A stretch of DNA of 25,665 nucleotides, taken from a virus. The translations under genes and the position numbers were made by a program. This document shows positions 7,174 through 25,665 of the stretch, in pieces. The stretch is from positions 1 through 25,665 of the IMG/VR virus record IMGVR_UViG_3300018428_000158. One strand, 5' to 3'. Position 1 is the first letter of the stretch; every line of letters begins with the position of its first letter. The notes under the pieces were generated by a model. It searched no databases and had not been told where the DNA came from. It saw only the letters and a list, made by a program, of their open reading frames with translations.

Positions 7174-7486
7174 TATTGTATCTTTCCTCGGCTCTGTTTA
7201 CACTTTCTGTTAGGATAGAGTTTAACACAGAACTTATAACATCTTCAAATCTTTTTTTGATATTTTCATCGGAAAGTATTTTGTCCTTATTTTCATCGAG
7301 GATTGTGTATTCAAAAGAAACTTTAAATGATTCTTCGCCATCTTCACCTAGATTGACTACACCATATGAATATTCGATACCGGAAAACTCTGTGTCAATC
7401 AACTTAATCTTTGCGAGTTCTCCATCTTTCTCATATCCGTTGTTGGGGTCAATGATTACGTAGTCTCTATTCTCCCGCAGTTTCAT
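7148..7486 (-). CDS. Small protein at the T4 gp40 position
   Basis: A 112-residue acidic protein. The reading frame is open to 7546, but the ATG at 7486 ([12 protein letters not shown]) is chosen because it has a strong GAGGAGAT site and only a 20-bp overlap with uvsX. It contains a beta-rich N-terminal half ([25 protein letters not shown]) and a helical C-terminus ([19 protein letters not shown]). In T4 the gene between uvsX and 41 is gp40 (114 residues, a head-vertex assembly chaperone), so position and length agree. I do not recognise a conserved motif that proves homology. Confidence 0.7.
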
Positions 7487-8525
7487 CGAGAATCTCCTCT
7501 TCGATTTCACCAGCACCGTACAAGAACTCACTCTTACACGCATCATCGATTAACGCCAACACATCTTCAGTGTAATACTTCTCAGGCTCTCGATTGATAA
7601 CTGTACCAAACACTTTTGACCCGTCAGGCAACTCATATCGAGTAGATACTTTCTTGAAGATACCATACTTCTCTGCGATTTCAAGCAAGCCATAGTATCG
7701 GTCCAGCCCATGCTGATAAGTAATCTTCACTTCGACTTGTGCGTTCTCTTTAGTCAGACGAGACTTCTGCATCTTTGCTCTGACGATATTACCAATGACT
7801 TCTTTACCGTCTTTCTCTTTCTTCTTGGAAAGCATAACGATAGTTGATGCGGTGTACTTCAAGCCGGAGCCACCAGACATTTCTTTCATAGGAACATAGG
7901 AACCAACAACATCATAGACGTGGTTTGTTACCATAAGAGGAACACCAATCTTTGCAAGTCGTAGATTGAGTACACGGAAAGTCGCTTTGAGAATTGACGC
8001 TTTAGTCATATCCTTAGTCTCTTTTCCTTCCATCGTGTCTTCCATCTCTTTAGTGGATGACAACTGACCTAAAGAGTCAAGAATCATAATCATCGGTTCA
8101 CGCTTACTTTCAGGTTGCGCAGAATAGTTCTCAATGATTTTCAGTGCAGTGTGACGAAACTTCTGAATAGTGTCGGGCTCTGAAATGACAACTCGTGACG
8201 TATCAATACCACGGTCTTCCATCATACCCTTTGTGACAGCCGCTTCAGTATCGAAGTAAATGACACCACCTGTAGGATTTGCATCTAGGAATTGCTTGAC
8301 GATACCTAGAACAAAAAACGTTTTACCTGTTGCGGATTCACCGGCGAATGCGGTGACTTTATTATTGGGAACACCACCGTAGATACTACCAGACAACACA
8401 GCGTTGAGTGCGTAACTACCAGTATCGATGCATCCCGTATATTCAGCAGACGCATTACCATCGGCAAGGATTTTAGTATCCTCATCTTTGAGCGTCTCAA
8501 CTAGATTATTAAAAAATTTACTCAT
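7467..8525 (-). CDS. uvsX: UvsX RecA-like recombinase
   Basis: Strand-exchange protein for recombination-dependent replication and repair, working with UvsY and gp32 in T4. The 352 residues (T4 UvsX 391) contain Walker A GESATGKT at 62-69, a switch glutamate region [10 protein letters not shown], Walker [10 protein letters not shown] near 146, and the L1/L2 area with NHVYDV and [10 protein letters not shown]. The ATG at 8525 follows an AACAGGAG site. The gene has its own sigma70-like promoter, one of two identical copies flanking the two-gene cassette upstream. Its 3' end overlaps the gp40-position gene. Confidence 0.95.
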
Positions 8526-8532
8526 ACAAAAC

Positions 8533-8583
8533 TCCTGTTCAAGTTGCGGTCATTATATCACAAAAGATAAAAAAAAGCAAGGG
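8533..8583 (-). repeat. 51-bp direct repeat, copy A (uvsX leader)
   Basis: Identical over 51 bp to 9788-9838. It contains the -35, spacer, -10, leader and the AGGA ribosome binding site core. On its right it directly abuts the TAG stop (8584-8586) of the PD-(D/E)XK-like gene; on its left it runs into the uvsX start. It holds only one arm (CCCTTGC on the minus strand) of the terminator hairpin that is complete at the other copy. Confidence 0.95.
8552..8580 (-). promoter_or_regulatory. Sigma70-like promoter of uvsX
   Basis: On the minus strand: -35 TTGCTT (8575-8580), 17-bp spacer ending TTTTGTGA, -10 TATAAT (8552-8557). The TGTGA before the -10 and the T-rich spacer are shared with the promoters near 9807, 21842 and 24948. 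Confidence 0.8.
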
Positions 8584-9165
8584 CTAAAGTTTCGAACATT
8601 TTACGATTTTATGTTCCTTCGACTTTGGATCGACAAAAATAAAAAAATCAGCATGCGATAATTTCTCTGTTTCAGTGACATTGTAACGTAAATTATGTGC
8701 AGTTTTTATTTGGAAGGTAAACTGATTACCTTTAGTATCAGTGAGGATGGCGTCTATTTTGTAAAGCATATCAATTTCAGATTTATGACCACTAACAAGA
8801 TTTACATTGGAAACGTCAGGATACTGCCTTAAAATATCTACCGCAATATTTTCAGTCTTTTTACCTTTTTCAATACAGTCATCAACAATTTCCTTCATCT
8901 TTTTACAAACATCACTATTCGGGTCAAAAACGTCCGGATCATTTGTAACACACTGGTAAAGGTCTTTCATTTGATCGAGTGGATTTTTATGAGGAATATT
9001 ATACCAAGAGAGCAATTCTTTCCCAAGTTTAACATTTGTAGTTACATAGCTGTAAAAGTAAATGTCTGAAGGTGAGATTTCGTCTAAGTGAAGAAAAAAC
9101 CATTTGTATTTTTTTCCTATGGGACTATCTTGTAAAGCTTCCTTAAAAATCATCATCCAACTCAT
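8584..9165 (-). CDS. PD-(D/E)XK nuclease-like protein of the inserted cassette
   Basis: A 193-residue protein with a possible restriction-endonuclease-like core. A helix with E106 precedes the signature: KIDAIL (D138), a turn DTKGNQ, then FQIKT (Q152, K154), matching the D...(E/Q)xK arrangement. A following strand HADFFIFVDP is also usual for this fold. Its N-terminal 100 residues are unrecognised. The gene is coupled to the upstream ORF by TAATG, and its TAG stop directly touches the 51-bp repeat before uvsX. No full-length family is recognised. It may cleave DNA or be a DNA-repair/anti-defence nuclease; role unknown. Confidence 0.7.
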   Translation of the reverse strand: MSWMMIFKEALQDSPIGKKYKWFFLHLDEISPSDIYFYSYVTTNVKLGKELLSWYNIPHKNPLDQMKDLYQCVTNDPDVFDPNSDVCKKMKEIVDDCIEKGKKTENIAVDILRQYPDVSNVNLVSGHKSEIDMLYKIDAILTDTKGNQFTFQIKTAHNLRYNVTETEKLSHADFFIFVDPKSKEHKIVKCSKL

Positions 9166-9779
9166 TAGACCAAAGGTCGTAAAACAGATTCTAAATCATT
9201 TTTTAGCTGACTAAGCGACATAAATTGACTATACCTGTATTTTTTTTCAAGAGATTCCTTAGAAATACATTTCATCACAAAGAAATCTTGCAAAGGAAAG
9301 TCGCCGTCTCTAAGTTTTCGGGCAGCAGGGTGGTCGTCTTTTTTCACAAGGAACTCCTTTCCTTTACCAAAAAAGTATTCTTGACAGAACCGACCTAAAC
9401 GTAGATTAATATTTCCCTGTTCGCTGTCGCTATACATTATACAGAGAAGCTTCGGCTCTAAGGATGTAATAGGAAAATTTAACATCGGTTCGAAACCATA
9501 GATAAAAGTAAGGCCTTTTTGAGGAACTAAATGTTTTTTACCATAATAGTTAACTCTTTTAGAGGGGGCTTCAAAATCTTCTAGCGAAACCTTCAGGCCC
9601 TGAGAAGTTTGAATTAAAGCCTTTATATAATCAAAGATGCTGTAATTAGGTTCTGTTGTAAATCTGACCCATTTCAAACTTGGGAGCATTTCAAGTTTGA
9701 TATCATTTGCGATATCTACCATGGCATATGGATTTATATTAGATAGGGGTAATACCGCTCTGCGAGATTGCAAATTCAT
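9165..9779 (-). CDS. Unknown protein, first gene of the repeat-bounded cassette
   Basis: A 204-residue protein with no motif I can place. The open frame extends to a TTG at 9797, but the ATG at 9779 (MNLQSRRAVLPL) has an AGGA site 8 bases upstream and is preferred. It is basic with aromatic residues and short hydrophobic strands (LTFIYGFEPML, KLLCIMYSDS, DFFVMKCIS); no membrane segment or signal peptide is visible. The promoter is the second copy of the uvsX promoter. The stop overlaps the next start (TAATG), so this and the PD-(D/E)XK-like protein are probably made together and may form one system, such as a specificity or partner subunit plus a nuclease. Confidence 0.7.
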   Translation of the reverse strand: MNLQSRRAVLPLSNINPYAMVDIANDIKLEMLPSLKWVRFTTEPNYSIFDYIKALIQTSQGLKVSLEDFEAPSKRVNYYGKKHLVPQKGLTFIYGFEPMLNFPITSLEPKLLCIMYSDSEQGNINLRLGRFCQEYFFGKGKEFLVKKDDHPAARKLRDGDFPLQDFFVMKCISKESLEKKYRYSQFMSLSQLKNDLESVLRPLV

Positions 9780-9787
9780 AACATAAT

Positions 9788-9838
9788 TCCTGTTCAAGTT
9801 GCGGTCATTATATCACAAAAGATAAAAAAAAGCAAGGG
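9788..9838 (-). repeat. 51-bp direct repeat, copy B (cassette leader)
   Basis: Identical to 8533-8583 over 51 bp, offset by 1255 bp. Beyond its right end this copy continues with TTCG and the second hairpin arm, which copy A lacks. That suggests this is the intact original junction and copy A a partial duplicate, or that the cassette arrived with its own copy. Confidence 0.95.
9807..9835 (-). promoter_or_regulatory. Sigma70-like promoter of the two-gene cassette
   Basis: Minus strand TTGCTT (9830-9835), 17-bp spacer, TATAAT (9807-9812), identical to the uvsX promoter. The -35 lies inside the stem and T-tract of the terminator at 9825-9856, so termination of the upstream gene and initiation of this unit share bases. 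Confidence 0.8.
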
Positions 9839-9856
9839 TTCGCCCTTGCTTTTTTT
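9825..9856 (-). terminator. Strong bidirectional hairpin terminator after the DUF262-HNH gene
   Basis: The stem GCAAGGG/CCCTTGC (9832-9838 and 9843-9849) closes a 4-base loop (TTCG on plus, CGAA on minus) and is extended by A7/T7, giving up to 14 bp and a T-run on both strands. It lies about 10 bases beyond the DUF262-HNH stop codon at 9866. Confidence 0.85.
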
Positions 9857-9865
9857 CGTTGGCTG

Positions 9866-11332
9866 TTAAGCGGCCAGTCGTTCTAGAATGTCTTGACACA
9901 AGTGATTGGGATAGTCACATCCATAATCTCTCATGAATTCATCCAGATCAAGACCAGACATTTTTTTGTTAATCTTAGCACTTATCACTATAAGATTATC
10001 ATCTTTTGTCGTTCCTCCGTTTTTGAATGATATGATGTGACCACCTTCACACAAATCTAAAGAAATTTTTTCTCCGGAAATTGCGCACCTTCCACCCTGC
10101 TCGTTATACTTTCGAATAATCTGCTCTGTTGTAAAAAGTCTTGGGGAAGAGACTGCAAGACCTGGAATTTTTTCCATGCCCATCATTTCTTCAAGAGGTT
10201 TAAACTTCAAGACCATTTGTTTATTGATGTATTTTGTCATCAAATCAGTAAATTTCATTTTACCTTTTTTACTATCGGCCTCATATAATATTGGATCATC
10301 TGACTTAGAATTTAAAATCAACTCATTTAAGTTTTCAAAAAATGAATCTGAGAATTTTTTGGTGTCCACAATTCTAAAGTCTTTCAATTCCAGATAAACA
10401 ATATATTGAAACAAGTATAACAGTCTTCCTTGACTGGTTAAAACAGCTTTACGCAACCTTCTATTTTTATCCTGCGCCTGATATATTTTTTTCACCTCAT
10501 TCAATATTCTTACAACGTGTTTTGTCGTTGCATTGGCTTCTTCTGGCTCTTTTTGATACCGACTTGTAGTATCGTAGTCTCGGTCCAACTGTTGCTTATC
10601 CAGAGTAAAAATCAAAGAGTTTCGTTTTCTAATGCTTTTTACTATCGAGAACATTTTTGCAACAAGCTCTTCGCATTGTCTAGTTTTGTTTACGTTTAGA
10701 GTGTCAGTTAAAATTTCCCATATTGGGTGCTTTCGATAGCCGTTTTCAATGTCAAGCTCACATGGATTTACCAAACCACGAATTGCTGATGCCCAATAAC
10801 CTTTAAGACCATTTCTCTTTTCTGCGTCACTTAAGGGGTTTCCGTTATTTAACTCAACAAACTTTTCGCATGCGTCAGAGTCTGACATATTTTTGTAAAC
10901 AGTTATGGCAATTCTTATTTTTGAAAAATGTGCTAATTGTTCTTCAGTCAAGTCTTCATATTTCTTACCTGACAGGTGGAACCCTACCCCAACACCTCCG
11001 GATATCGGAACAAAAATACCATCCTCTATAGCAAATTTTTCGACCACATACTGGATGATACAATCAATCCTTTGCAGCCCATCGAGAACCTCATACGTCC
11101 CATCAGGAAGTTGGCGGACATGTATAGTGTTTATTCCACGTCCCTGCCAAAGAGATTTCAATATTTTTCTCATCCACGACTTCGTACCAACCACATTTCT
11201 CTGGTACCAAGGATTTTGACTGATCTTATCATCATGATAAAGATCTATAAGTTTAGATAAAGTCCAAGTCTCAATTACCCAAGGTTGATCAGAATTCAGC
11301 CAAGAACCAGATGTCATAGTTTTTGAGGTCAT
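9866..11332 (-). CDS. DUF262-HNH nuclease (GmrS/GmrD-like restriction family)
   Basis: A 488-residue protein with an N-terminal DUF262 (ParB/Srx-like) domain and a C-terminal HNH nuclease. DUF262 hallmarks are PWYQRN (41-46) and VLDGLQRI (82-89), which in this superfamily bind and hydrolyse nucleotides. The HNH domain shows C416, C428, GGHIIS with H432, GG, DDN with N446, and N455. Such proteins include the GmrSD and BrxU type IV restriction enzymes that cut modified phage DNA. In a phage, it could attack competing phages or act as a selfish nuclease. It has its own promoter and terminator and sits between polymerase-linked genes and uvsX, where T4 has other genes. Frequent long A/T runs suggest composition unlike its neighbours. 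Domain calls are firm; target is unknown. Confidence 0.85.
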   Translation of the reverse strand: MTSKTMTSGSWLNSDQPWVIETWTLSKLIDLYHDDKISQNPWYQRNVVGTKSWMRKILKSLWQGRGINTIHVRQLPDGTYEVLDGLQRIDCIIQYVVEKFAIEDGIFVPISGGVGVGFHLSGKKYEDLTEEQLAHFSKIRIAITVYKNMSDSDACEKFVELNNGNPLSDAEKRNGLKGYWASAIRGLVNPCELDIENGYRKHPIWEILTDTLNVNKTRQCEELVAKMFSIVKSIRKRNSLIFTLDKQQLDRDYDTTSRYQKEPEEANATTKHVVRILNEVKKIYQAQDKNRRLRKAVLTSQGRLLYLFQYIVYLELKDFRIVDTKKFSDSFFENLNELILNSKSDDPILYEADSKKGKMKFTDLMTKYINKQMVLKFKPLEEMMGMEKIPGLAVSSPRLFTTEQIIRKYNEQGGRCAISGEKISLDLCEGGHIISFKNGGTTKDDNLIVISAKINKKMSGLDLDEFMRDYGCDYPNHLCQDILERLAA

Positions 11333-11364: not shown

Positions 11365-11393
11365 ATAGTACATCAATGTATGAGGTTTGTCAA
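11365..11393 (-). promoter_or_regulatory. Sigma70 promoter of the DUF262-HNH gene with internal palindrome
   Basis: Minus strand TTGACA (11388-11393, consensus -35), 17-bp spacer, TACTAT -10 (11365-11370). An inverted repeat TACAT-TG-ATGTA (11369-11380) overlaps the -10 and spacer and could be an operator. The design differs from the TTGCTT/TGTGA promoters of the phage replication genes. The rest of the 99-bp gap (11333-11431) shows nothing else. Confidence 0.7.
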
Positions 11394-11431: not shown

Positions 11432-12325
11432 CTATGGAGATTTCAAATTATCTAAGGAAAATGGACCTTTAGTTTTTCCCTGTTCCTTCATAACTTTATT
11501 AAGTTCTTCTTTCTTCATAGGTACAGGGTCAATAGTTGTTGCGTCAATGTATTCGTCTGGAATCTTAGTATTAGTAGGCTGAGGAGGTCTAATCTGCATT
11601 AGAGAATAATTCCCAGCAATCAATAACAGTACCGCTAATGGGTCAAAGACAAATATGATTGTTATGATGACCCACGTAACAGCTTTTTCCAGAATCTCTT
11701 GATCCGTTTCGCCATAGACAAACGCTGCGATGTATTTGATTGGTCCGACTTCTGCTTCGACTTCTCTTCGTTCCGCTCGTATCGGCGCAAGTTCCTGGCG
11801 ATAAGCAGTGACTTTATCCTGCGCTTTCTCGATTTGGTCGAGGAGACGTGATCGCTCTTCGGCTTGTTCGTTTCTTGCGTTGACACCTTTTGTCACAGCC
11901 CCTAGTTCAGTGTATCTATCAATTTGATCGTTTAGGGTGCTAATATCCAAACGGGCCTGAGATATAATCTCTTGCTCAATCGCAATGCGTTCTTCTATTA
12001 ACACTATTCTATCACTAACATCACCGGATGTCAACCCCTGGTCGATGTGTGCTTTTGACAGGAACCCAAAGATTCCCAATGATGTTATCATAACAAGTAT
12101 CGAAACAGCAAACACAAAATAGTATTTCAGCAACTTAGGTGCGTTATACCAGTTTCGATAAACCCAACTTGCAGCAACAAGTTTGGATACTTCTAGCACA
12201 CTACCCATCACACCGATAGCAACAGGGCTTGCAGCAAAGATAGCAATCAACCCTGCGATGGAATAGTATGCCGCTACGAGAGATACCGACAATCCAGTCA
12301 GTATCATCATAAGTGCAGTCTTCAT
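11432..12325 (-). CDS. Multi-pass membrane protein with central coiled coil
   Basis: A 297-residue protein. Hydrophobic segments lie near residues 5-30, 33-52 and 67-92, then a long charged coiled-coil region (about 100-190, with RIVLIEERIAIEQEI and RSRLLDQIEKAQDK), then a last membrane segment near 215-242, and a polar tail rich in proline and lysine. Similar proteins occur near gene 43 in marine T4-like phages in my memory, with no assigned function. It starts one base after the stop of the preceding gene, so it belongs to the polymerase operon. It may act on the host envelope, for example in superinfection exclusion, but nothing in the sequence shows this directly. Confidence 0.75.
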   Translation of the reverse strand: MKTALMMILTGLSVSLVAAYYSIAGLIAIFAASPVAIGVMGSVLEVSKLVAASWVYRNWYNAPKLLKYYFVFAVSILVMITSLGIFGFLSKAHIDQGLTSGDVSDRIVLIEERIAIEQEIISQARLDISTLNDQIDRYTELGAVTKGVNARNEQAEERSRLLDQIEKAQDKVTAYRQELAPIRAERREVEAEVGPIKYIAAFVYGETDQEILEKAVTWVIITIIFVFDPLAVLLLIAGNYSLMQIRPPQPTNTKIPDEYIDATTIDPVPMKKEELNKVMKEQGKTKGPFSLDNLKSP

Positions 12326-17797: not shown

Positions 17798-18181
17798 TCA
17801 ATCGCCTTTTTCTGTTTTTATTCTTAAATCATTCAGTTGCTCTTTAGTAAGAACTTTTAGCGCCTCTTTAGCCTTTGATTTGTTGTATCCAAACAGTTCG
17901 GATATGAGCAGAAGATCGTCAGAAATCTCTTCCTTGTGCCACTTACTAAATCTTTTACGAGGACGTATACTATTTAGCAAAAAGAGAAATTGCGCTTTCT
18001 TCGGGAGTTGATGATACTGGTTCATTTCGTTCGCATAGAAGATAGAATCAGGAAAATACGATAATCCTCTATTCGTCAGAAATGGTTCATAGGATTTCTC
18101 TGCCAACGCATCGTTAGCAGAGTCTTCCATAAGGTTTTCTTTTGTTGAATTGATTGCGTTCAGATAATCAAATGGTTTCAT
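17798..18181 (-). CDS. 62: Clamp loader small subunit, gp62-like
   Basis: One subunit of the gp44/gp62 clamp loader that opens gp45 and places it on primed DNA. At 127 residues it is clearly shorter than T4 gp62 (187). Residues with a marine-type gp62 look include the NAINSTKENLM start, SYFPDSIFYANEMNQYH and RPRKRFSKWHK. Identity is strengthened by its position between clamp loader genes and regA. It overlaps the SNase gene by ATGA. Confidence 0.85.
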   Translation of the reverse strand: MKPFDYLNAINSTKENLMEDSANDALAEKSYEPFLTNRGLSYFPDSIFYANEMNQYHQLPKKAQFLFLLNSIRPRKRFSKWHKEEISDDLLLISELFGYNKSKAKEALKVLTKEQLNDLRIKTEKGD

Positions 18182-18615
18182 TTTACAGTGATATGCTCAT
18201 AATATTTTGTTTCAAGAAGTTCACGATTCTTTAGATGTTGATCTTCAATGTCATCTTTTGACTGCCCATAATACTCTACTGCGAGGTGTTTGTCAATCAT
18301 TAATTGATTCACAGAACATTGTCGGTCAGTTTCGGGATCATACACAATGAATTCACCAAGGATACGACCGAACTTACCTGTCGCATCTTTGTGCGTCTTC
18401 AGTGTACCTTCTTTACCTAACATTGCTTTTAGGAATTCCTTAGCCGCAAGTCCAAATCGCTTTTCCGTTTTATCACGAGTACGGGACTCAGGAGTATCAA
18501 TACCATACAACCTAACGCGCTGGTTACTGAGAATAACATCAAAACCAAGATCAATGTCAATGTCCACTGTATCGCCATCCACCACCTTTTTAATTTTGCA
18601 CCTATACTCATACAT
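18178..18615 (-). CDS. SNase-type (thermonuclease) nuclease
   Basis: A 145-residue OB-fold nuclease of the staphylococcal nuclease family. The catalytic pattern is clear: VVDGDTVDIDIDLG, then R35-LYGID40-TPE43-SR, and GKFGRILGEF with R84. It would cleave DNA or RNA with calcium, perhaps aiding host DNA breakdown or repair. No signal peptide is seen, so it is probably cytoplasmic. Its ribosome binding site (AAGGA) lies in a 23-bp repeat copied from the 3' end of the DUF3310 gene. It overlaps gp62 by ATGA. Confidence 0.9.
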   Translation of the reverse strand: MYEYRCKIKKVVDGDTVDIDIDLGFDVILSNQRVRLYGIDTPESRTRDKTEKRFGLAAKEFLKAMLGKEGTLKTHKDATGKFGRILGEFIVYDPETDRQCSVNQLMIDKHLAVEYYGQSKDDIEDQHLKNRELLETKYYEHITVK

Positions 18616-21137: not shown

Positions 21138-21163
21138 GGGCTCATTCCGAGTAGGTTGAGCCC
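21138..21163 (-). other. Hairpin straddling the gp45 stop codon
   Basis: Inverted repeat GGGCTCA/TGAGCCC (21138-21144 and 21157-21163) with a 12-base loop. The right arm encodes the last codons of gp45 and the left arm includes the stop. No T-run follows. It may protect the 3' end of the clamp mRNA or be a weak attenuator. Confidence 0.5.
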
Positions 21164-21816
21164 GCTTCAGTAGCAATCCAGTATTGGAGCGTTTCATTAG
21201 CATTGACGAAGTATGAGATACCTTCAGTCGTGATAGAAACATCGTATGTGCCAGGAATAATCTTCAGGCTATCATAGCGAAAGATGCTCTGGAATTCTGC
21301 AGTAGTCTCACCAACATCAATCCAGAAAACATCAGAGTCTTCATTCTTCACGTCAATCGCTGCGATTGAAATCTTATTCCTATCACCTCGAATCACGATA
21401 TTAGGAAGACCTAACACACCACCAAGCTTCATCACTTGAGACAGAGTGTCATTAGTGAGAGTAAACTTTACTTCGGCATCTTCAATATCTAACTCATCTT
21501 CGGGAGGAGACACAACCATAATCTCATCAGACAGACGATACAGAACACGCGCTCTTTCATCGTCAATCTCAAGAGACTTGTTATCGATATTGATTTTGAT
21601 GTCAGGGCTGTTCATAATAGACAGAACAGACAACAAACGATTCAAATCATAAATCACAAAGGTCTCATCAAAAGAATCTTCAATTTTTGCTTGCGCTAAA
21701 ATGTTTTGTTCTTTAGATACAGTGCGAATGACATTGCCTTTCTTGAAAACCATTCCGTGATTGATTTGGGAAAAGTTTTTCAACACAGACATTGTGCTTT
21801 CACTTAGTTTCATCAT
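21142..21816 (-). CDS. 45: Sliding clamp, gp45-like
   Basis: Trimeric processivity clamp for gp43 and, in T4, the mobile activator of late transcription. About 224 residues, near T4 gp45 (228). The N-terminus MKLSESTMSVLKNFSQINHGM aligns with the T4 clamp start, and FVIYDLNRLLSVLSIMN matches the conserved YDLN...LS segment. The C-terminal YWIATEA plus S-T-x-S ending also agrees. The open frame begins at a GTG (21822), but the ATG at 21816, spaced well from the AGAGG site, is preferred. It has its own strong promoter. Exact late promoters elsewhere in the window fit a working gp45-dependent late system. Confidence 0.95.
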   Translation of the reverse strand: MMKLSESTMSVLKNFSQINHGMVFKKGNVIRTVSKEQNILAQAKIEDSFDETFVIYDLNRLLSVLSIMNSPDIKINIDNKSLEIDDERARVLYRLSDEIMVVSPPEDELDIEDAEVKFTLTNDTLSQVMKLGGVLGLPNIVIRGDRNKISIAAIDVKNEDSDVFWIDVGETTAEFQSIFRYDSLKIIPGTYDVSITTEGISYFVNANETLQYWIATEAGSTYSE

Positions 21817-21841
21817 ATTCACCTCTAGTCATAAAAAACAT

Positions 21842-21870
21842 ATTATATCACACAATAATAAAAAAAGCAA
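21842..21870 (-). promoter_or_regulatory. Sigma70-like promoter of gp45
   Basis: Minus strand TTGCTT (21865-21870), 17-bp T-rich spacer ending TGTGTGA, TATAAT (21842-21847). Very close in sequence to the uvsX promoter. Confidence 0.8.
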
Positions 21871-21877
21871 GAGAAGA

Positions 21878-22173: not shown

Positions 22174-23745
22174 TTAAGGTTTGTAGTAAACAAATATAGG
22201 TTCGTATTTATGAATAGAACCATTTATCACGCAACTATTTTTAAAAGTTGCTTGCTCGTCAGAAACTCTGTTTCCGCCAGGCATTTTCGCAAGAGCCATT
22301 TTCAAGAATCCTTTGTATTCCATCCCAAACTCTTCCAAAATTTCTCTGCTATCATCTTCTAGTGGTAACATATCTTTACCGAGTTTTATGTCAGCAATGT
22401 TCCACAAAAGATATCTGTCGCTCCTCAAATATTCCACAGCAGTTTTCAGTGTCTGTCTTAGAAATCCTTCCTTCCACACTTCATACGTATCAAACTTCTT
22501 GTAGGATTGTTCGTCATCTTCTGAATATGCTTCCTTAGAAAAATAAGGAGGCGACGTAAAAACTAAATCAAGATTTCCTTTATACTTTTTAAATCTTGTA
22601 TCTTTATCTATAACTTCTGAACCCAATTGGTACACATCAAATGTATTAGACTTCTTAAACAGTGTTCCAGAGTTTTTAGTTTCATTATAGAATTTTGCTA
22701 AGTGTTCGTATTTAGTACTTTTTTCTCCATTTATGTATATAGTGTGGTCAGTGTTAGGGTCAGTTCCTATGTAATTAATTATACTTGGAGAACGAACTGC
22801 CATAGCGCCTAGTATTCTTCCACCCCATCCACTTGACGGGTCATAGATGTTTATGACATCTTGGTCCTTGATGTGCCTCGTATATTTCTCGTACAAATAC
22901 TTAGCAGTCATTGGAGGAAAGTTTACAGCATATTGACACCAAGAGATTCTAAATGCTTTTAGTCCAATAGGAAACAACTTTTGTCTTTTTTTATAGATTC
23001 TAATCTGATAGATGAATCCTTCCTTATCTTCCTTCACATTAGCTTTACATGTTTCGGGAATATTATAACAGGAAAGTTCATCCTTTGTCAAGTGCAAAAA
23101 CTCAGTTGTTCTTAAATCATCCTTGAAGCCTGTATACTCTGTGTCTTTCTTATGGTCAATCCAATAATCGTGTGTGTCATATACTCTTGCTTTATTCTCA
23201 AACCATTCTATAAAACTTTTAGCATCAGTGACTGTATGAGACTGACTTCCTATAGTAATAGTCTCACCAACTTTGATAGTTAAAGAATATGAATAAAAAG
23301 AGTCACGCTTGAAATGACGCCGAGCATACTTGAGAGTTTTTTCTAGTAAGTTATCATTTTTGAAATGGTCATAAATTGACAACCCATCATCATTAGCACT
23401 GTAGTTAATTCTAGTTTTCATCATAGTAGGAAACCACTGATTGGCAGCGTTTCCTAGATTCGATGAATTTTTTATTACATCAAGTTCTCCAGTAGTATCG
23501 TCTAATCTCTCAAACTCGTGAACTGGATATCCATACATTTTCTTAAATTGGTCTTTGATTTCTTCTTCATCGTATCCTACTCTTGGAGGAAATCCCAACT
23601 CATCCCATGCGTATACAACTGCTTTGCGCAGTTCGACAAACCACTCAACAAACTCATCGTCAGTCATCCACATAACTTCTTCAAAAGGTTTGTTGGTCCA
23701 ATGGTTCATCAACCAATCGTTCTTTTCATAAAATACTTTTGTCAT
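22174..23745 (-). CDS. DNA methyltransferase with TSPPY motif
   Basis: A 523-residue S-adenosylmethionine-dependent DNA methyltransferase. The SAM-binding motif I is DPSSGWGGR (302-310) and the catalytic motif IV is TSPPY (397-401), of the kind found in N4-cytosine and some N6-adenine enzymes. The order motif I then IV and the C-terminal GFLKMALAKMPGG region fit a single-chain enzyme. The N-terminal 290 residues are long and unrecognised and may carry the target recognition part. No cognate restriction gene is adjacent. It may modify phage DNA against host restriction. It is coupled to the deaminase by ATGA. Confidence 0.85.
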   Translation of the reverse strand: MTKVFYEKNDWLMNHWTNKPFEEVMWMTDDEFVEWFVELRKAVVYAWDELGFPPRVGYDEEEIKDQFKKMYGYPVHEFERLDDTTGELDVIKNSSNLGNAANQWFPTMMKTRINYSANDDGLSIYDHFKNDNLLEKTLKYARRHFKRDSFYSYSLTIKVGETITIGSQSHTVTDAKSFIEWFENKARVYDTHDYWIDHKKDTEYTGFKDDLRTTEFLHLTKDELSCYNIPETCKANVKEDKEGFIYQIRIYKKRQKLFPIGLKAFRISWCQYAVNFPPMTAKYLYEKYTRHIKDQDVINIYDPSSGWGGRILGAMAVRSPSIINYIGTDPNTDHTIYINGEKSTKYEHLAKFYNETKNSGTLFKKSNTFDVYQLGSEVIDKDTRFKKYKGNLDLVFTSPPYFSKEAYSEDDEQSYKKFDTYEVWKEGFLRQTLKTAVEYLRSDRYLLWNIADIKLGKDMLPLEDDSREILEEFGMEYKGFLKMALAKMPGGNRVSDEQATFKNSCVINGSIHKYEPIFVYYKP

Positions 23746-24206
23746 ACTTGTTCTATTCCCACATTACTGTCAAGTAGAAACTGTTTACCTGACCCCACAT
23801 TTGATTCATAATCATCTGCGTAATAGACTGCAGTGATTCCGCTCTGGTGTATTAATTTAGCACAGTTGATACACGGCATATGAGTCGTAAACATTACAGC
23901 ATCCTTACACGATTCCGAACTCTGTGCTACTTTCGCTATAGCGTTTGTCTCTGCGTGTAAGACTTCATCCTTTGTAATCTTCTTGCAGTATACTTCGTAG
24001 TCAGAAGGATGCATCCAGTCTTCAATCGTTTCGGGGTCGTAGTACTCACACTCGTTATCCCAGCCGGATGGCATTCCATTGTAACCAATGGAAATGATGC
24101 GATTATCTTTTACAATAATCGCACCGACTTGCGCTCGTGTAGCATAGCTAAGTTCGGCAAATGTTTTTGCCGTATTCATATACGCTTCTTTGAATCTACT
24201 CTTCAT
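23742..24206 (-). CDS. cd: Deoxycytidylate deaminase-type enzyme
   Basis: A 154-residue zinc-dependent deaminase, probably converting dCMP to dUMP for dTMP synthesis. The zinc and catalytic motif HAE is at H84-E86 and the second motif PCINC at P111-C115 supplies two cysteine ligands. An insertion with C53, H66 and C74 lies between the first strand and HAE, as in T4 dCMP deaminase, which binds a second zinc there. The ATG at 24206 lies within the end of the preceding gene (11-bp overlap). Confidence 0.9.
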   Translation of the reverse strand: MKSRFKEAYMNTAKTFAELSYATRAQVGAIIVKDNRIISIGYNGMPSGWDNECEYYDPETIEDWMHPSDYEVYCKKITKDEVLHAETNAIAKVAQSSESCKDAVMFTTHMPCINCAKLIHQSGITAVYYADDYESNVGSGKQFLLDSNVGIEQV

Positions 24207-24924
24207 CTAGATACTCGAAACATTCCTTAACTGCTTTAGTTTTTTCGTCTGTGTTATGGTAGTTGAAATAATCTTGTGGAACGTCATGCCACTTTTTTAC
24301 CATCCATCCTACATACGCATAGTATCCTTTGCCATTAGTGTCGCACCAATCGTAGTTGAGTTCGCAATGAGTTTTATCATACCATACTTGCTCAGGCATA
24401 GTAGCAACGTCAGTCTCAACAAATCCAACTTGAAACTTGTTGATATCGAAGGGTTCATTCAGTTCCAAATCAACTTGCCAGAACTGACCTTTCTCTGCGC
24501 TATGAAACATAAGAACAGGAACAACATCTCCGTTCTCTAGTTCTTCGTCGCTAGGCTCTTCACTTCCAGCATAACACTCACGGCTATACACATGAGTAGC
24601 ATCATTCAAACTAAAGATTTCAGGCTCACCAATATCTTCTCCGTCATCATCTACTCGCTGAACATAGACATCCGAATCACCATAGCAACTGTTGAAGTGT
24701 TCGAGGTCGTCTATCTCGTACCAACCACCTGGATTGTATCCTTCGATTGGCTCAGGTGAATCAGAGGTCTCCCAATCTACATCCCAATCACACAATACTT
24801 CGATCAAATCGCCGTCACCATCTTCTTCAACACGCTCTTTCCAATAGCGAACGAAGTCAGCATTGACTGTTCCAATAGCAACTTCACCGCCGTAACGCCC
24901 CGCTCTCACAACATATTTGTACAT
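24196..24924 (-). CDS. Acidic protein of unknown function
   Basis: A 242-residue, strongly acidic protein rich in tryptophan and tyrosine. It begins MYKYVVRAGRYGGEVAIGTV, then alternates acidic turns (EDGDGD, VDDDGED, EEPSDEELENGD) with aromatic strands (CDWDVDW, YYAYVGWMVKKWH). Beta-rich folding is likely. The acid charge recalls DNA-mimic or inhibitor proteins, but that is speculation. A good promoter precedes it, and a GGAG site lies before the ATG. Confidence 0.7.
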   Translation of the reverse strand: MYKYVVRAGRYGGEVAIGTVNADFVRYWKERVEEDGDGDLIEVLCDWDVDWETSDSPEPIEGYNPGGWYEIDDLEHFNSCYGDSDVYVQRVDDDGEDIGEPEIFSLNDATHVYSRECYAGSEEPSDEELENGDVVPVLMFHSAEKGQFWQVDLELNEPFDINKFQVGFVETDVATMPEQVWYDKTHCELNYDWCDTNGKGYYAYVGWMVKKWHDVPQDYFNYHNTDEKTKAVKECFEYLDEE

Positions 24925-24947: not shown

Positions 24948-24976
24948 ATTGTATCACAAAAGTTTCTAAAAAGCAA
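24948..24976 (-). promoter_or_regulatory. Sigma70-like promoter of the acidic-protein operon
   Basis: Minus strand TTGCTT (24971-24976), 17-bp spacer ending CTTTTGTGA, TACAAT (24948-24953). The -35 lies within the last codons of the upstream PLP enzyme gene. It shares TTTTGTGATA with the uvsX promoter. Confidence 0.75.
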
Positions 24977-25665
24977 CATTCCAATATAAAATATTTTTTG
25001 GCTTATCGTGCGTCTCATAGTAATCAAGCATAGGCTGCCAACCCTTTGCGTCATATGTAGGTGCAGAAGGAAAGGGAGGTACCTCGTGTTTCTTGACTGG
25101 GCGGTCAAACTTGTATGGCGAGATATGATGGATTGCTCGACCAATCTCTCTTTCTTTCATAGAGTGCCCAACTTGAACTACATGGATTTCTGCTTCGGGA
25201 AACGCTAACTGAAGCCCTCTATTGAGAGTTCCTGACGACCCTACTGACCATATAGCATCAGGCACGATAGGAAGGTCTCTAGCAACTTTGATGATAGATG
25301 CTAGTACAGTTTCGTGTTCTAATCCAAGGGGGAGAACTCGGCGAGTGGATGGGCTCTCTTCTACATACTTACGTGCTTTTGATTGCGTCACATTGAGCAT
25401 ACCCATTTTGACCCAGTGATATTCTGCACCGAGTTCCAACCCCCTCCTTTGGTAGTCATGGAGTTTATCCATACTACGCTCTGCCATAAACAGTACGGCT
25501 TTCTTTCCGTACCTTTCGCACACGACCGGCAGACTAATCTGTGCATAACCTGTTGCGGGGCAAGACCCAAACACCCATTCTTTGACATCTCTGTTTTCTT
25601 CTGCGTGACCTATAAAGTAATCAATGAAACGAATCTTGCTACCATAACTTAGCAAATCGTCACGC
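24966..25665 (-). CDS. PLP-dependent enzyme, fold type II (ACC deaminase/cysteine synthase-like), 5'-truncated
   Basis: The frame is open through the right edge, so the N-terminus is missing. The first visible residues RDDLLSYGSKIRFIDYFIG match the RDD...GGNKxRKLE segment of D-cysteine desulfhydrase and ACC deaminase. The lysine in YGSK is the likely PLP-binding residue. GSCPATGYAQIS corresponds to the substrate loop, and SVGSSGTLNRGL to the glycine-rich phosphate-binding loop. A TTG at 25655 would give a start, but it would cut into the PLP-lysine motif, so the gene almost certainly begins outside. The phage role could be amino acid or sulfur metabolism. Substrate is not predictable. Confidence 0.75.
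   Translation of the reverse strand, partial: RDDLLSYGSKIRFIDYFIGHAEENRDVKEWVFGSCPATGYAQISLPVVCERYGKKAVLFMAERSMDKLHDYQRRGLELGAEYHWVKMGMLNVTQSKARKYVEESPSTRRVLPLGLEHETVLASIIKVARDLPIVPDAIWSVGSSGTLNRGLQLAFPEAEIHVVQVGHSMKEREIGRAIHHISPYKFDRPVKKHEVPPFPSAPTYDAKGWQPMLDYYETHDKPKNILYWNVAF

What the first reader, a model, noticed from the sequence alone, without database searches (positions are those of the whole stretch)
8584..11332. Nuclease island between the gp43 operon and uvsX: DUF262-HNH plus an unknown/PD-(D/E)XK-like pair
Three genes with nuclease or unknown character interrupt the conserved replication cluster. The DUF262-HNH protein belongs to the GmrSD/BrxU-type restriction group, unusual as cargo in a lytic T4-like phage core. 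The paired genes (204 and 193 residues, TAATG-coupled) match no system I recognise: one has a D138...Q152-x-K154 core, the other nothing known. This could be an inter-phage exclusion module, a mobile nuclease island or a new anti-defence system, and is the best candidate for an undescribed system here.
Basis: partly seen in the sequence, partly recalled or inferred. Interest (0 to 1): 0.75.

Follow-up and report, generated by a model that had tools for sequence, protein, structure and literature searches.

The report
Swappable nuclease cassette in T4-like phage
Next to its recombinase gene, this T4-like virus carries a DNA-cutting-enzyme gene that related viruses exchange as a cassette, plus a two-gene add-on of unknown kind that most relatives lack; both look like accessory weapons or hitchhikers rather than core genes.

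Summary
The three genes are real and placed as stated. The "island" is two separate things.

(1) A DUF262-HNH gene with its own terminator and the promoter for uvsX. It sits between a conserved membrane-protein gene and uvsX in 13 contigs (window plus 12), is missing from close relatives, and occurs as two alleles only 36-37% identical inside conserved flanks. Its synonymous divergence is lower than that of neighbouring genes. One pair of phages shares a 92-100% identical tract centred on it, and another contig is a recombinant with its crossover in uvsX. It is therefore a nuclease cassette moved by recombination.

(2) A two-gene module (204 + 193 aa), present in 3 of the 13. It is inserted exactly between two copies of a 58-nt terminator-half/promoter/leader; L093 shows the site without it. 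No relatives were found in any library searched. The 193-aa protein has an E105...D138...Q152-x-K154 pattern like Mrr-type nucleases, but neither profile comparison nor structure prediction confirmed the fold.

Most likely reading: an inter-phage nuclease cassette (restriction-like or homing-like) with a recent orphan add-on. DGQQR and DUF1524, which define GmrSD, are not met. Function is inferred, not shown.

The parts
9866..11332 (-). DUF262-HNH protein, 488 aa; D84-G-L-Q-R88 in the DUF262 part, HNH with H432, N446, N455
11365..11393 (-). promoter-like site of the DUF262 gene, TTGACA-17-TACTAT
   Evidence: consensus match only; 13 found against 10.4 expected in shuffles
9824..9857 (-). intrinsic terminator after DUF262-HNH, 15-pair stem; its T-tract lies just upstream of the next promoter
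   Evidence: z -4.85
9781..9838 (-). repeat copy B: 3' half of the terminator, TG-TATAAT promoter box (9807-9812) and leader; now drives p204
9165..9779 (-). p204, first gene of the orphan pair, no known relative
8584..9165 (-). p193, second gene of the pair, TAATG overlap with p204; PD-(D/E)XK-like motif E105...D138...Q152-x-K154
8526..8583 (-). repeat copy A: starts right after the p193 stop; promoter box (8552-8557) and leader of uvsX; terminator 5' arm missing, so no terminator
   Evidence: z +1.32
7467..8525 (-). uvsX recombinase, right flank; the L005 crossover lies inside it, from about 8382 on
11432..12325 (-). p297, conserved membrane/coiled-coil protein, left flank of the cassette site

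Best explanation
The locus is a site in the replication cluster of this clade of T4-like phages where a DUF262-HNH nuclease gene is carried as an exchangeable cassette. Shown by sequence: the cassette is the gene plus a terminator and a promoter that serves uvsX; it is present or absent and occurs as two old alleles; it moves with short flanks by homologous recombination through p297 and uvsX. Inferred: the nuclease acts on DNA of co-infecting phages (or other foreign DNA) that lacks the right protection, the DUF262 domain gating the HNH domain as in bacterial DUF262 nucleases; cutting plus UvsX-dependent repair would favour inheritance of the cassette. The p204-p193 pair was added later behind the DUF262 terminator with a duplicate of the uvsX promoter and now uses the original promoter; p193 may be a PD-(D/E)XK-type nuclease (about 35%) with p204 as partner.
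For: Thirteen contigs carry DUF262-terminator-promoter-uvsX (window plus 12); L009, L012 and L013 have p297 directly followed by uvsX, gaps 56, 107 and 107 nt. Two alleles 36-37% identical lie in flanks up to 99% identical (L159: p145 99%, uvsX 96%), yet the last ~45 nt of the gene and the terminator are shared across alleles. dS: window-L093 DUF262 0.32, uvsX 1.25, p132 1.22; L157-L154 gp43 0.82, p145 1.03, p297 0.18, DUF262 0.05, uvsX 0.52. L154-L157 identity 92-100% from within p297 to within uvsX, 80-88% to the left, 57-84% to the right. L005 equals the window to uvsX nt ~143, then the L152 type. DUF262 dN/dS 0.30 against L093, so purifying selection. The pair lies exactly between two repeat copies; L093 shows the pair-free site. 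A 238-aa HNH protein (L075) and a 151-aa endonuclease-like protein (L069) occupy the same interval in distant relatives.
Against: No activity, target or host is known. The same tract pattern is expected from homing or from selected hitchhiking. DGLQR replaces DGQQR, so NTPase function is uncertain. The pair is identical in all three contigs that have it (0 differences), so selection on it cannot be shown. No profile or fold support for p193 as a nuclease. One DUF262 comparison (L157-L154) has dN/dS 0.78.
Confidence: 0.45

Rival explanations
1. The DUF262-HNH gene is a free-standing homing endonuclease like T4 SegA or the Mob proteins: it cuts a sequence in uvsX or p297 of cassette-free phages and is copied in with co-converted flanks, with no benefit to the phage beyond marker exclusion.
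For: Intergenic position between conserved genes, presence/absence in close relatives, conversion-like tract centred on the gene with ends in p297 and uvsX. T4 SegA lies at uvsX/beta-gt and targets uvsX; homing leaves co-conversion tracts and explains marker exclusion (PMC2988022 passages).
Against: No DUF262 homing enzyme is known to me; the old alleles (36-37% identical) in homogenised flanks look more like specificity types under diversifying selection; T4 Mob proteins are described as an HNH domain followed by a DNA-binding region, here the HNH domain is C-terminal.
Confidence: 0.3
2. The genes act on the host: host DNA breakdown or exclusion of plasmids and prophages, moved around by ordinary recombination.
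For: Phage nucleases of this role are common (recalled); the promoter-like sites resemble host-type sigma-70 sites.
Against: Such functions are usually fixed in a phage group (recalled); here the gene is missing from close relatives and has divergent alleles.
Confidence: 0.12
3. The p204-p193 pair is a non-functional recent acquisition, identical in three contigs because it is new.
For: 0 differences between the window and L005 or L006 in the pair; no relatives anywhere searched; lower GC (0.325 and 0.359 against 0.392 for the window).
Against: Two intact coupled ORFs with phage-like codon use, a promoter box, and insertion exactly at gene ends.
Confidence: 0.15
4. p193 is not a nuclease; the D...QxK pattern is chance.
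For: hhalign gave nothing: score 13.7, reached by 32 of 200 shuffles for Mrr_cat. AF2 pLDDT 45.9.
Against: The full E-D-QxK pattern occurs in 0 of 838 viral and 0 of 88 bacterial control ORFs and 3 of 20000 shuffles, but in 10 of 22 Mrr_cat hit sequences. The pattern was written with p193 in view, and the 22 had been kept because they hold a [QE]-[ACV]-K, so this is weak.
Confidence: 0.5

Closest known systems
GmrSD / BrxU / SspE (DUF262 nucleases)
   Same: DUF262-like N-terminal domain and C-terminal His-Me finger (HNH) domain in one chain
   Different: DGLQR not DGQQR; HNH of PF01844 type, no DUF1524 match; phage-borne cassette rather than bacterial defence island
T4 free-standing homing endonucleases (SegA at uvsX; MobA-E, HNH)
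   Same: nuclease gene next to a conserved replication gene, presence/absence polymorphism, conversion-like tracts
   Different: DUF262 domain, two old alleles, own terminator/promoter; no cleavage site known
PeSL promoter/stem-loop cassettes of T4-like phages
   Same: composite terminator-promoter element at the edge of a shuffled module
   Different: this exact terminator was found only between DUF262 and uvsX (12 of 12 contigs with the pattern); the pair insertion kept only half of the stem-loop
Sf-FS3 'HNH Cas9-type domain' protein (XYM58844.1)
   Same: 495 aa, phrog_2598 region plus HNH, in a Synechococcus phage
   Different: 22.6% identity, different neighbourhood (2OG oxygenases), p193/p204 not found in the phage collection
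Mrr_cat nucleases
   Same: helix E, D, Q-x-K order and spacing similar to p193
   Different: no profile-level match

Membership tests
GmrSD type IV restriction | DUF262 / PF03235 domain | tested here: met
   window 31.8 bits, just under the 33.2 cut-off; allele II L010 39.2 bits, above it; phrog_2598 E 2.2e-21
GmrSD type IV restriction | DGQQR motif (nearly 100% conserved, PMC4619093 passages) | tested here: not met
   DGLQR in 9 of 9 aligned homologues
GmrSD type IV restriction | DUF1524 domain | tested here: not met
   no PF07510 match at E <= 1 for the window protein or at E <= 0.1 for L010 and L093; PF01844 weak instead
GmrSD type IV restriction | E/D-H-N-N catalytic motif | tested here: inconclusive
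   H432, N446, N455 kept, but G431 precedes H instead of E/D
GmrSD type IV restriction | cleavage of modified DNA | not testable with these tools
   -
Free-standing homing endonuclease | intergenic nuclease gene, present in some relatives and absent in others | tested here: met
Free-standing homing endonuclease | co-conversion-like tract around the gene | tested here: met
   one clear two-sided case (L154-L157)
Free-standing homing endonuclease | sequence-specific cleavage of the cassette-free allele | not testable with these tools
   -
PeSL cassette | stem-loop terminator joined to a promoter | tested here: met
   the -10 is TG-TATAAT but the -35 is poor, and the site is not listed
PeSL cassette | many similar copies over the genome at module borders | tested here: inconclusive
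   two looser copies at 21842 and 24948; whole genome not available
PD-(D/E)XK nuclease (p193) | conserved core motif | tested here: met
   post hoc pattern
PD-(D/E)XK nuclease (p193) | fold or profile match | tested here: inconclusive
   pLDDT 45.9; Foldseek 0 matches at E <= 0.001; hhalign no signal

The most novel reading that the evidence does not exclude
p204-p193 is an undescribed two-component nuclease system of phage-phage conflict: an orphan Mrr-like nuclease with an orphan partner. It was slotted behind a restriction-type DUF262-HNH cassette by duplicating the uvsX promoter, so that T4-like phages assemble stacked, swappable 'defence islands' beside their own recombinase gene, whose product would spread them.
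Probability: 0.2. Interest if true: 0.8.

Novelty: new variant of a known kind. Interest (0 to 1): 0.5.

Why it matters
DUF262 nucleases are known as bacterial weapons against phages. Here a DUF262-HNH gene behaves as a swappable phage cassette inside the replication core, with two old allele types. That gives a ready natural comparison (empty, allele I, allele II, allele I plus pair) for asking whether phages use restriction-type enzymes against each other, and whether homing and exclusion are two sides of one process.

Tried and rejected
One island: rejected, because L093 has the DUF262 gene without the pair, and nine allele II contigs lack the pair.

Pair elsewhere: no match in the phage or plasmid collections, in GTDB genome contigs (p193 only), or in 28 of 30 related contigs (one further 15.6-bit match of p193 in G026 was taken as chance). 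A degenerate D...QxK DNA pattern hit only the two known contigs in IMG/VR and four ORFs in GTDB genomes judged unrelated. 395 genomes of one bacterial phylum gave 5 weak matches, taken as chance because the motif residues are not kept in the alignments printed (4 of 5 printed); that phylum was chosen only because a chance hit gave a handle, the host being unknown.

Mrr_cat and SduA_C profile comparison: no signal; one search was a failed first version that read some hits on the wrong strand, and its output was not used. PDDEXK_5 gave too few members. The NCBIfam GFO_1090 hint (E 0.024) was followed to one member, which showed no nuclease motif by eye, and dropped.

AF2 single-sequence models: p193 pLDDT 45.9, p204 31.6; the fold search was without meaning; p204 was not fold-searched. 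The PADLOC name NsnA (E 1.2e-17) could not be traced in the papers.
Full report
What was checked. The window is a 25,665-base IMG/VR virus record. Its replication genes run on the minus strand: gp43, p145, p297, DUF262-HNH, p204, p193, uvsX, p132, gp41. The nearest gp43 proteins in named phages are about 54% identical, and the 30 records listed are all cyanophages. In Prochlorococcus phage P-HM1 gp43 overlaps uvsX directly, so the interval holds inserted genes here. The three ORFs of the finding are as described and have coding signal only in their own frame.

The repeat. A 58-nt direct repeat at 97% identity lies at 8526-8583 and 9781-9838, so it flanks the pair exactly. On the coding strand each copy reads CCCTTGCTTTTTTTTATC...TG-A-TATAAT...leader. 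Copy B is preceded by the other half of the hairpin and forms a strong terminator (-20.2 kcal/mol, z -4.85; 0 of 200 shuffles as good). Copy A starts right after the p193 stop, lacks the 5' arm and folds no terminator (z +1.32) (terminator also). The two copies are identical over 51 nt, while the same stretch differs by 4 positions in L008 and by 6 of 46 in L093. Reading: the ancestral order DUF262-terminator-promoter-uvsX was opened by insertion of the pair plus a second copy of the half element. p204 took the original promoter and uvsX kept a duplicate; read-through from the pair into uvsX is expected.

The site without the pair. L093 has a DUF262-HNH 83% identical to the window's, followed directly by terminator, promoter and uvsX. 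Using uvsX (80 loci kept of 587 relatives), DUF262 and the terminator pattern, I found 12 IMG/VR contigs with DUF262-terminator-promoter-uvsX; with the window, 13. Three of these 13 carry the pair: the window, L006 (99.8% identical over the 10.3 kb compared) and L005. So there may be only two independent lineages. L009, L012 and L013 (the last two alike) have neither gene, with p297 followed by uvsX after 56, 107 and 107 nt. L008 and L011 are cut at the contig start within DUF262. Of 50 related contigs searched with phrog_2598, 4 matched; the cut genes of L008 and L011 were not caught by that search. All 12 contigs with the exact terminator pattern are this locus.

The cassette moves. DUF262 alleles I (window, L005, L006, L093) and II (L152, L154-L159, with L008, L010 and L011; L154 is the contig of L010) are 36-37% identical to each other. 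Within allele II the full-length proteins compared are 73-100% identical. Yet L159, with allele II, has p145 99% and uvsX 96% identical to the window, and the last ~45 nt of the gene plus the terminator are nearly the same in allele I and in L152/L158. Synonymous divergence is lower in DUF262 than in the flanks. Window-L093: 0.32 against uvsX 1.25 and p132 1.22, gp41 saturated. L157-L154: 0.05 against gp43 0.82, p145 1.03, p297 0.18, uvsX 0.52. L152-L159: 0.26 against uvsX 0.57, p132 0.94 and gp41 0.36, a less clear case. L154 and L157 are 92-100% identical from within p297 to within uvsX, but 80-88% to the left and 57-84% to the right. L005 is identical to the window from gp43 through the pair apart from one base in DUF262, and on to uvsX nucleotide about 143; its p132 and gp41 then equal L152 (dS 0), with uvsX dS 0.12. 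These are footprints of recombination around the cassette. dN/dS of DUF262 is 0.30 (window-L093) and 0.20 (L152-L158), but 0.78 for the very close pair L157-L154.

What the nuclease may do. The protein has a DUF262-like part and an HNH end. GmrSD features: DGQQR is conserved in nearly 100% of that family (PMC4619093, passages); here it is DGLQR in 9 of 9 homologues. No DUF1524 match was seen. So it is not filed as GmrSD, though it may work like it. DUF262 proteins without DUF1524 exist in PD-T4-2, Menshen and Dazbog (PMC10952713, passages), and a GmrS/GmrSD doublet restricts T-even phages (PMC12373910, passages). Some phage nucleases are proposed to attack superinfecting phages (PMC7824862, passages). 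T4 keeps SegA beside uvsX with uvsX as target, and homing uses UvsX or RecA and leaves co-conversion tracts (PMC2988022, passages). I prefer an inter-phage nuclease over pure homing because of the old allele types, but the footprint evidence fits both. Shown: anatomy, alleles, exchange. Inferred: cutting, target, benefit.

The pair. No library, phage, plasmid or genome search found a relative; IMG/VR gave only the two contigs with identical proteins. The p193 pattern E105...D138...Q152-x-K154 has the order and spacing of Mrr_cat. My pattern, written with p193 in view, fits 10 of 22 Mrr_cat hit sequences, 0 of 838 viral and 0 of 88 bacterial control ORFs, and 3 of 20,000 shuffles. The 22 are not a neutral sample: 30 loci were fetched for that family, 24 were tried and 22 kept because they hold [QE]-[ACV]-K, and at least one (L114) looks mis-read. 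Against this: hhalign to Mrr_cat scored 13.7, reached by 32 of 200 shuffles and by other window proteins, and SduA_C was worse. The AF2 models have no useful confidence. I put p193 as a nuclease at about one in three and leave p204 as unknown partner.

Known context. PeSL elements in T4-like phages are promoter/stem-loop cassettes said to mediate gene shuffling (PMC4503421, passages; the original papers were not held). This locus resembles them, with a twist: half an element was duplicated at the second insertion. DUF262 proteins in other T4-like phages: short ones in JSE (172 aa) and POP12 (171 aa), and a 495-aa relative with HNH in Sf-FS3. The same gp43-uvsX interval holds an HNH protein in L075, an endonuclease-like protein in L069, and methyltransferase and radical-SAM genes in L045, so it is a recurring cargo site. 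My paper searches touching phage-encoded DUF262 listed no study of such a cassette in a T4-like phage; I saw only the listings and the passages named here.

Noticed in passing
21842-21871 and 24948-24977: Two looser copies (87% and 80%) of the terminator-half/promoter element, upstream of the ORFs 21142-21822 (226 aa, sliding-clamp position) and 24196-24924 (242 aa); the 21842 copy follows a different GC-rich stem.
   Followed up: partly
22174-23745: 523-aa protein with an N6/N4 DNA methyltransferase domain (PF01555 E 5.9e-6); could protect the phage's own DNA from a resident nuclease.
   Followed up: no
18178-18615: Staphylococcal-nuclease-like protein (PF00565 E 1e-13).
   Followed up: no
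24966-25655: Threonine-dehydratase-like protein (phrog_7093 E 2e-31) near the contig end.
   Followed up: no
11432-12325: p297, a membrane/coiled-coil protein conserved just after p145 in many of the related contigs, only weak Pfam hits; left border of the cassette site.
   Followed up: no
L045:1052-4706: Between gp43 and uvsX in a distant relative: radical SAM, QueC-like, DNA methyltransferase and tRNA-methyltransferase-like genes, perhaps a base-modification cluster.
   Followed up: partly
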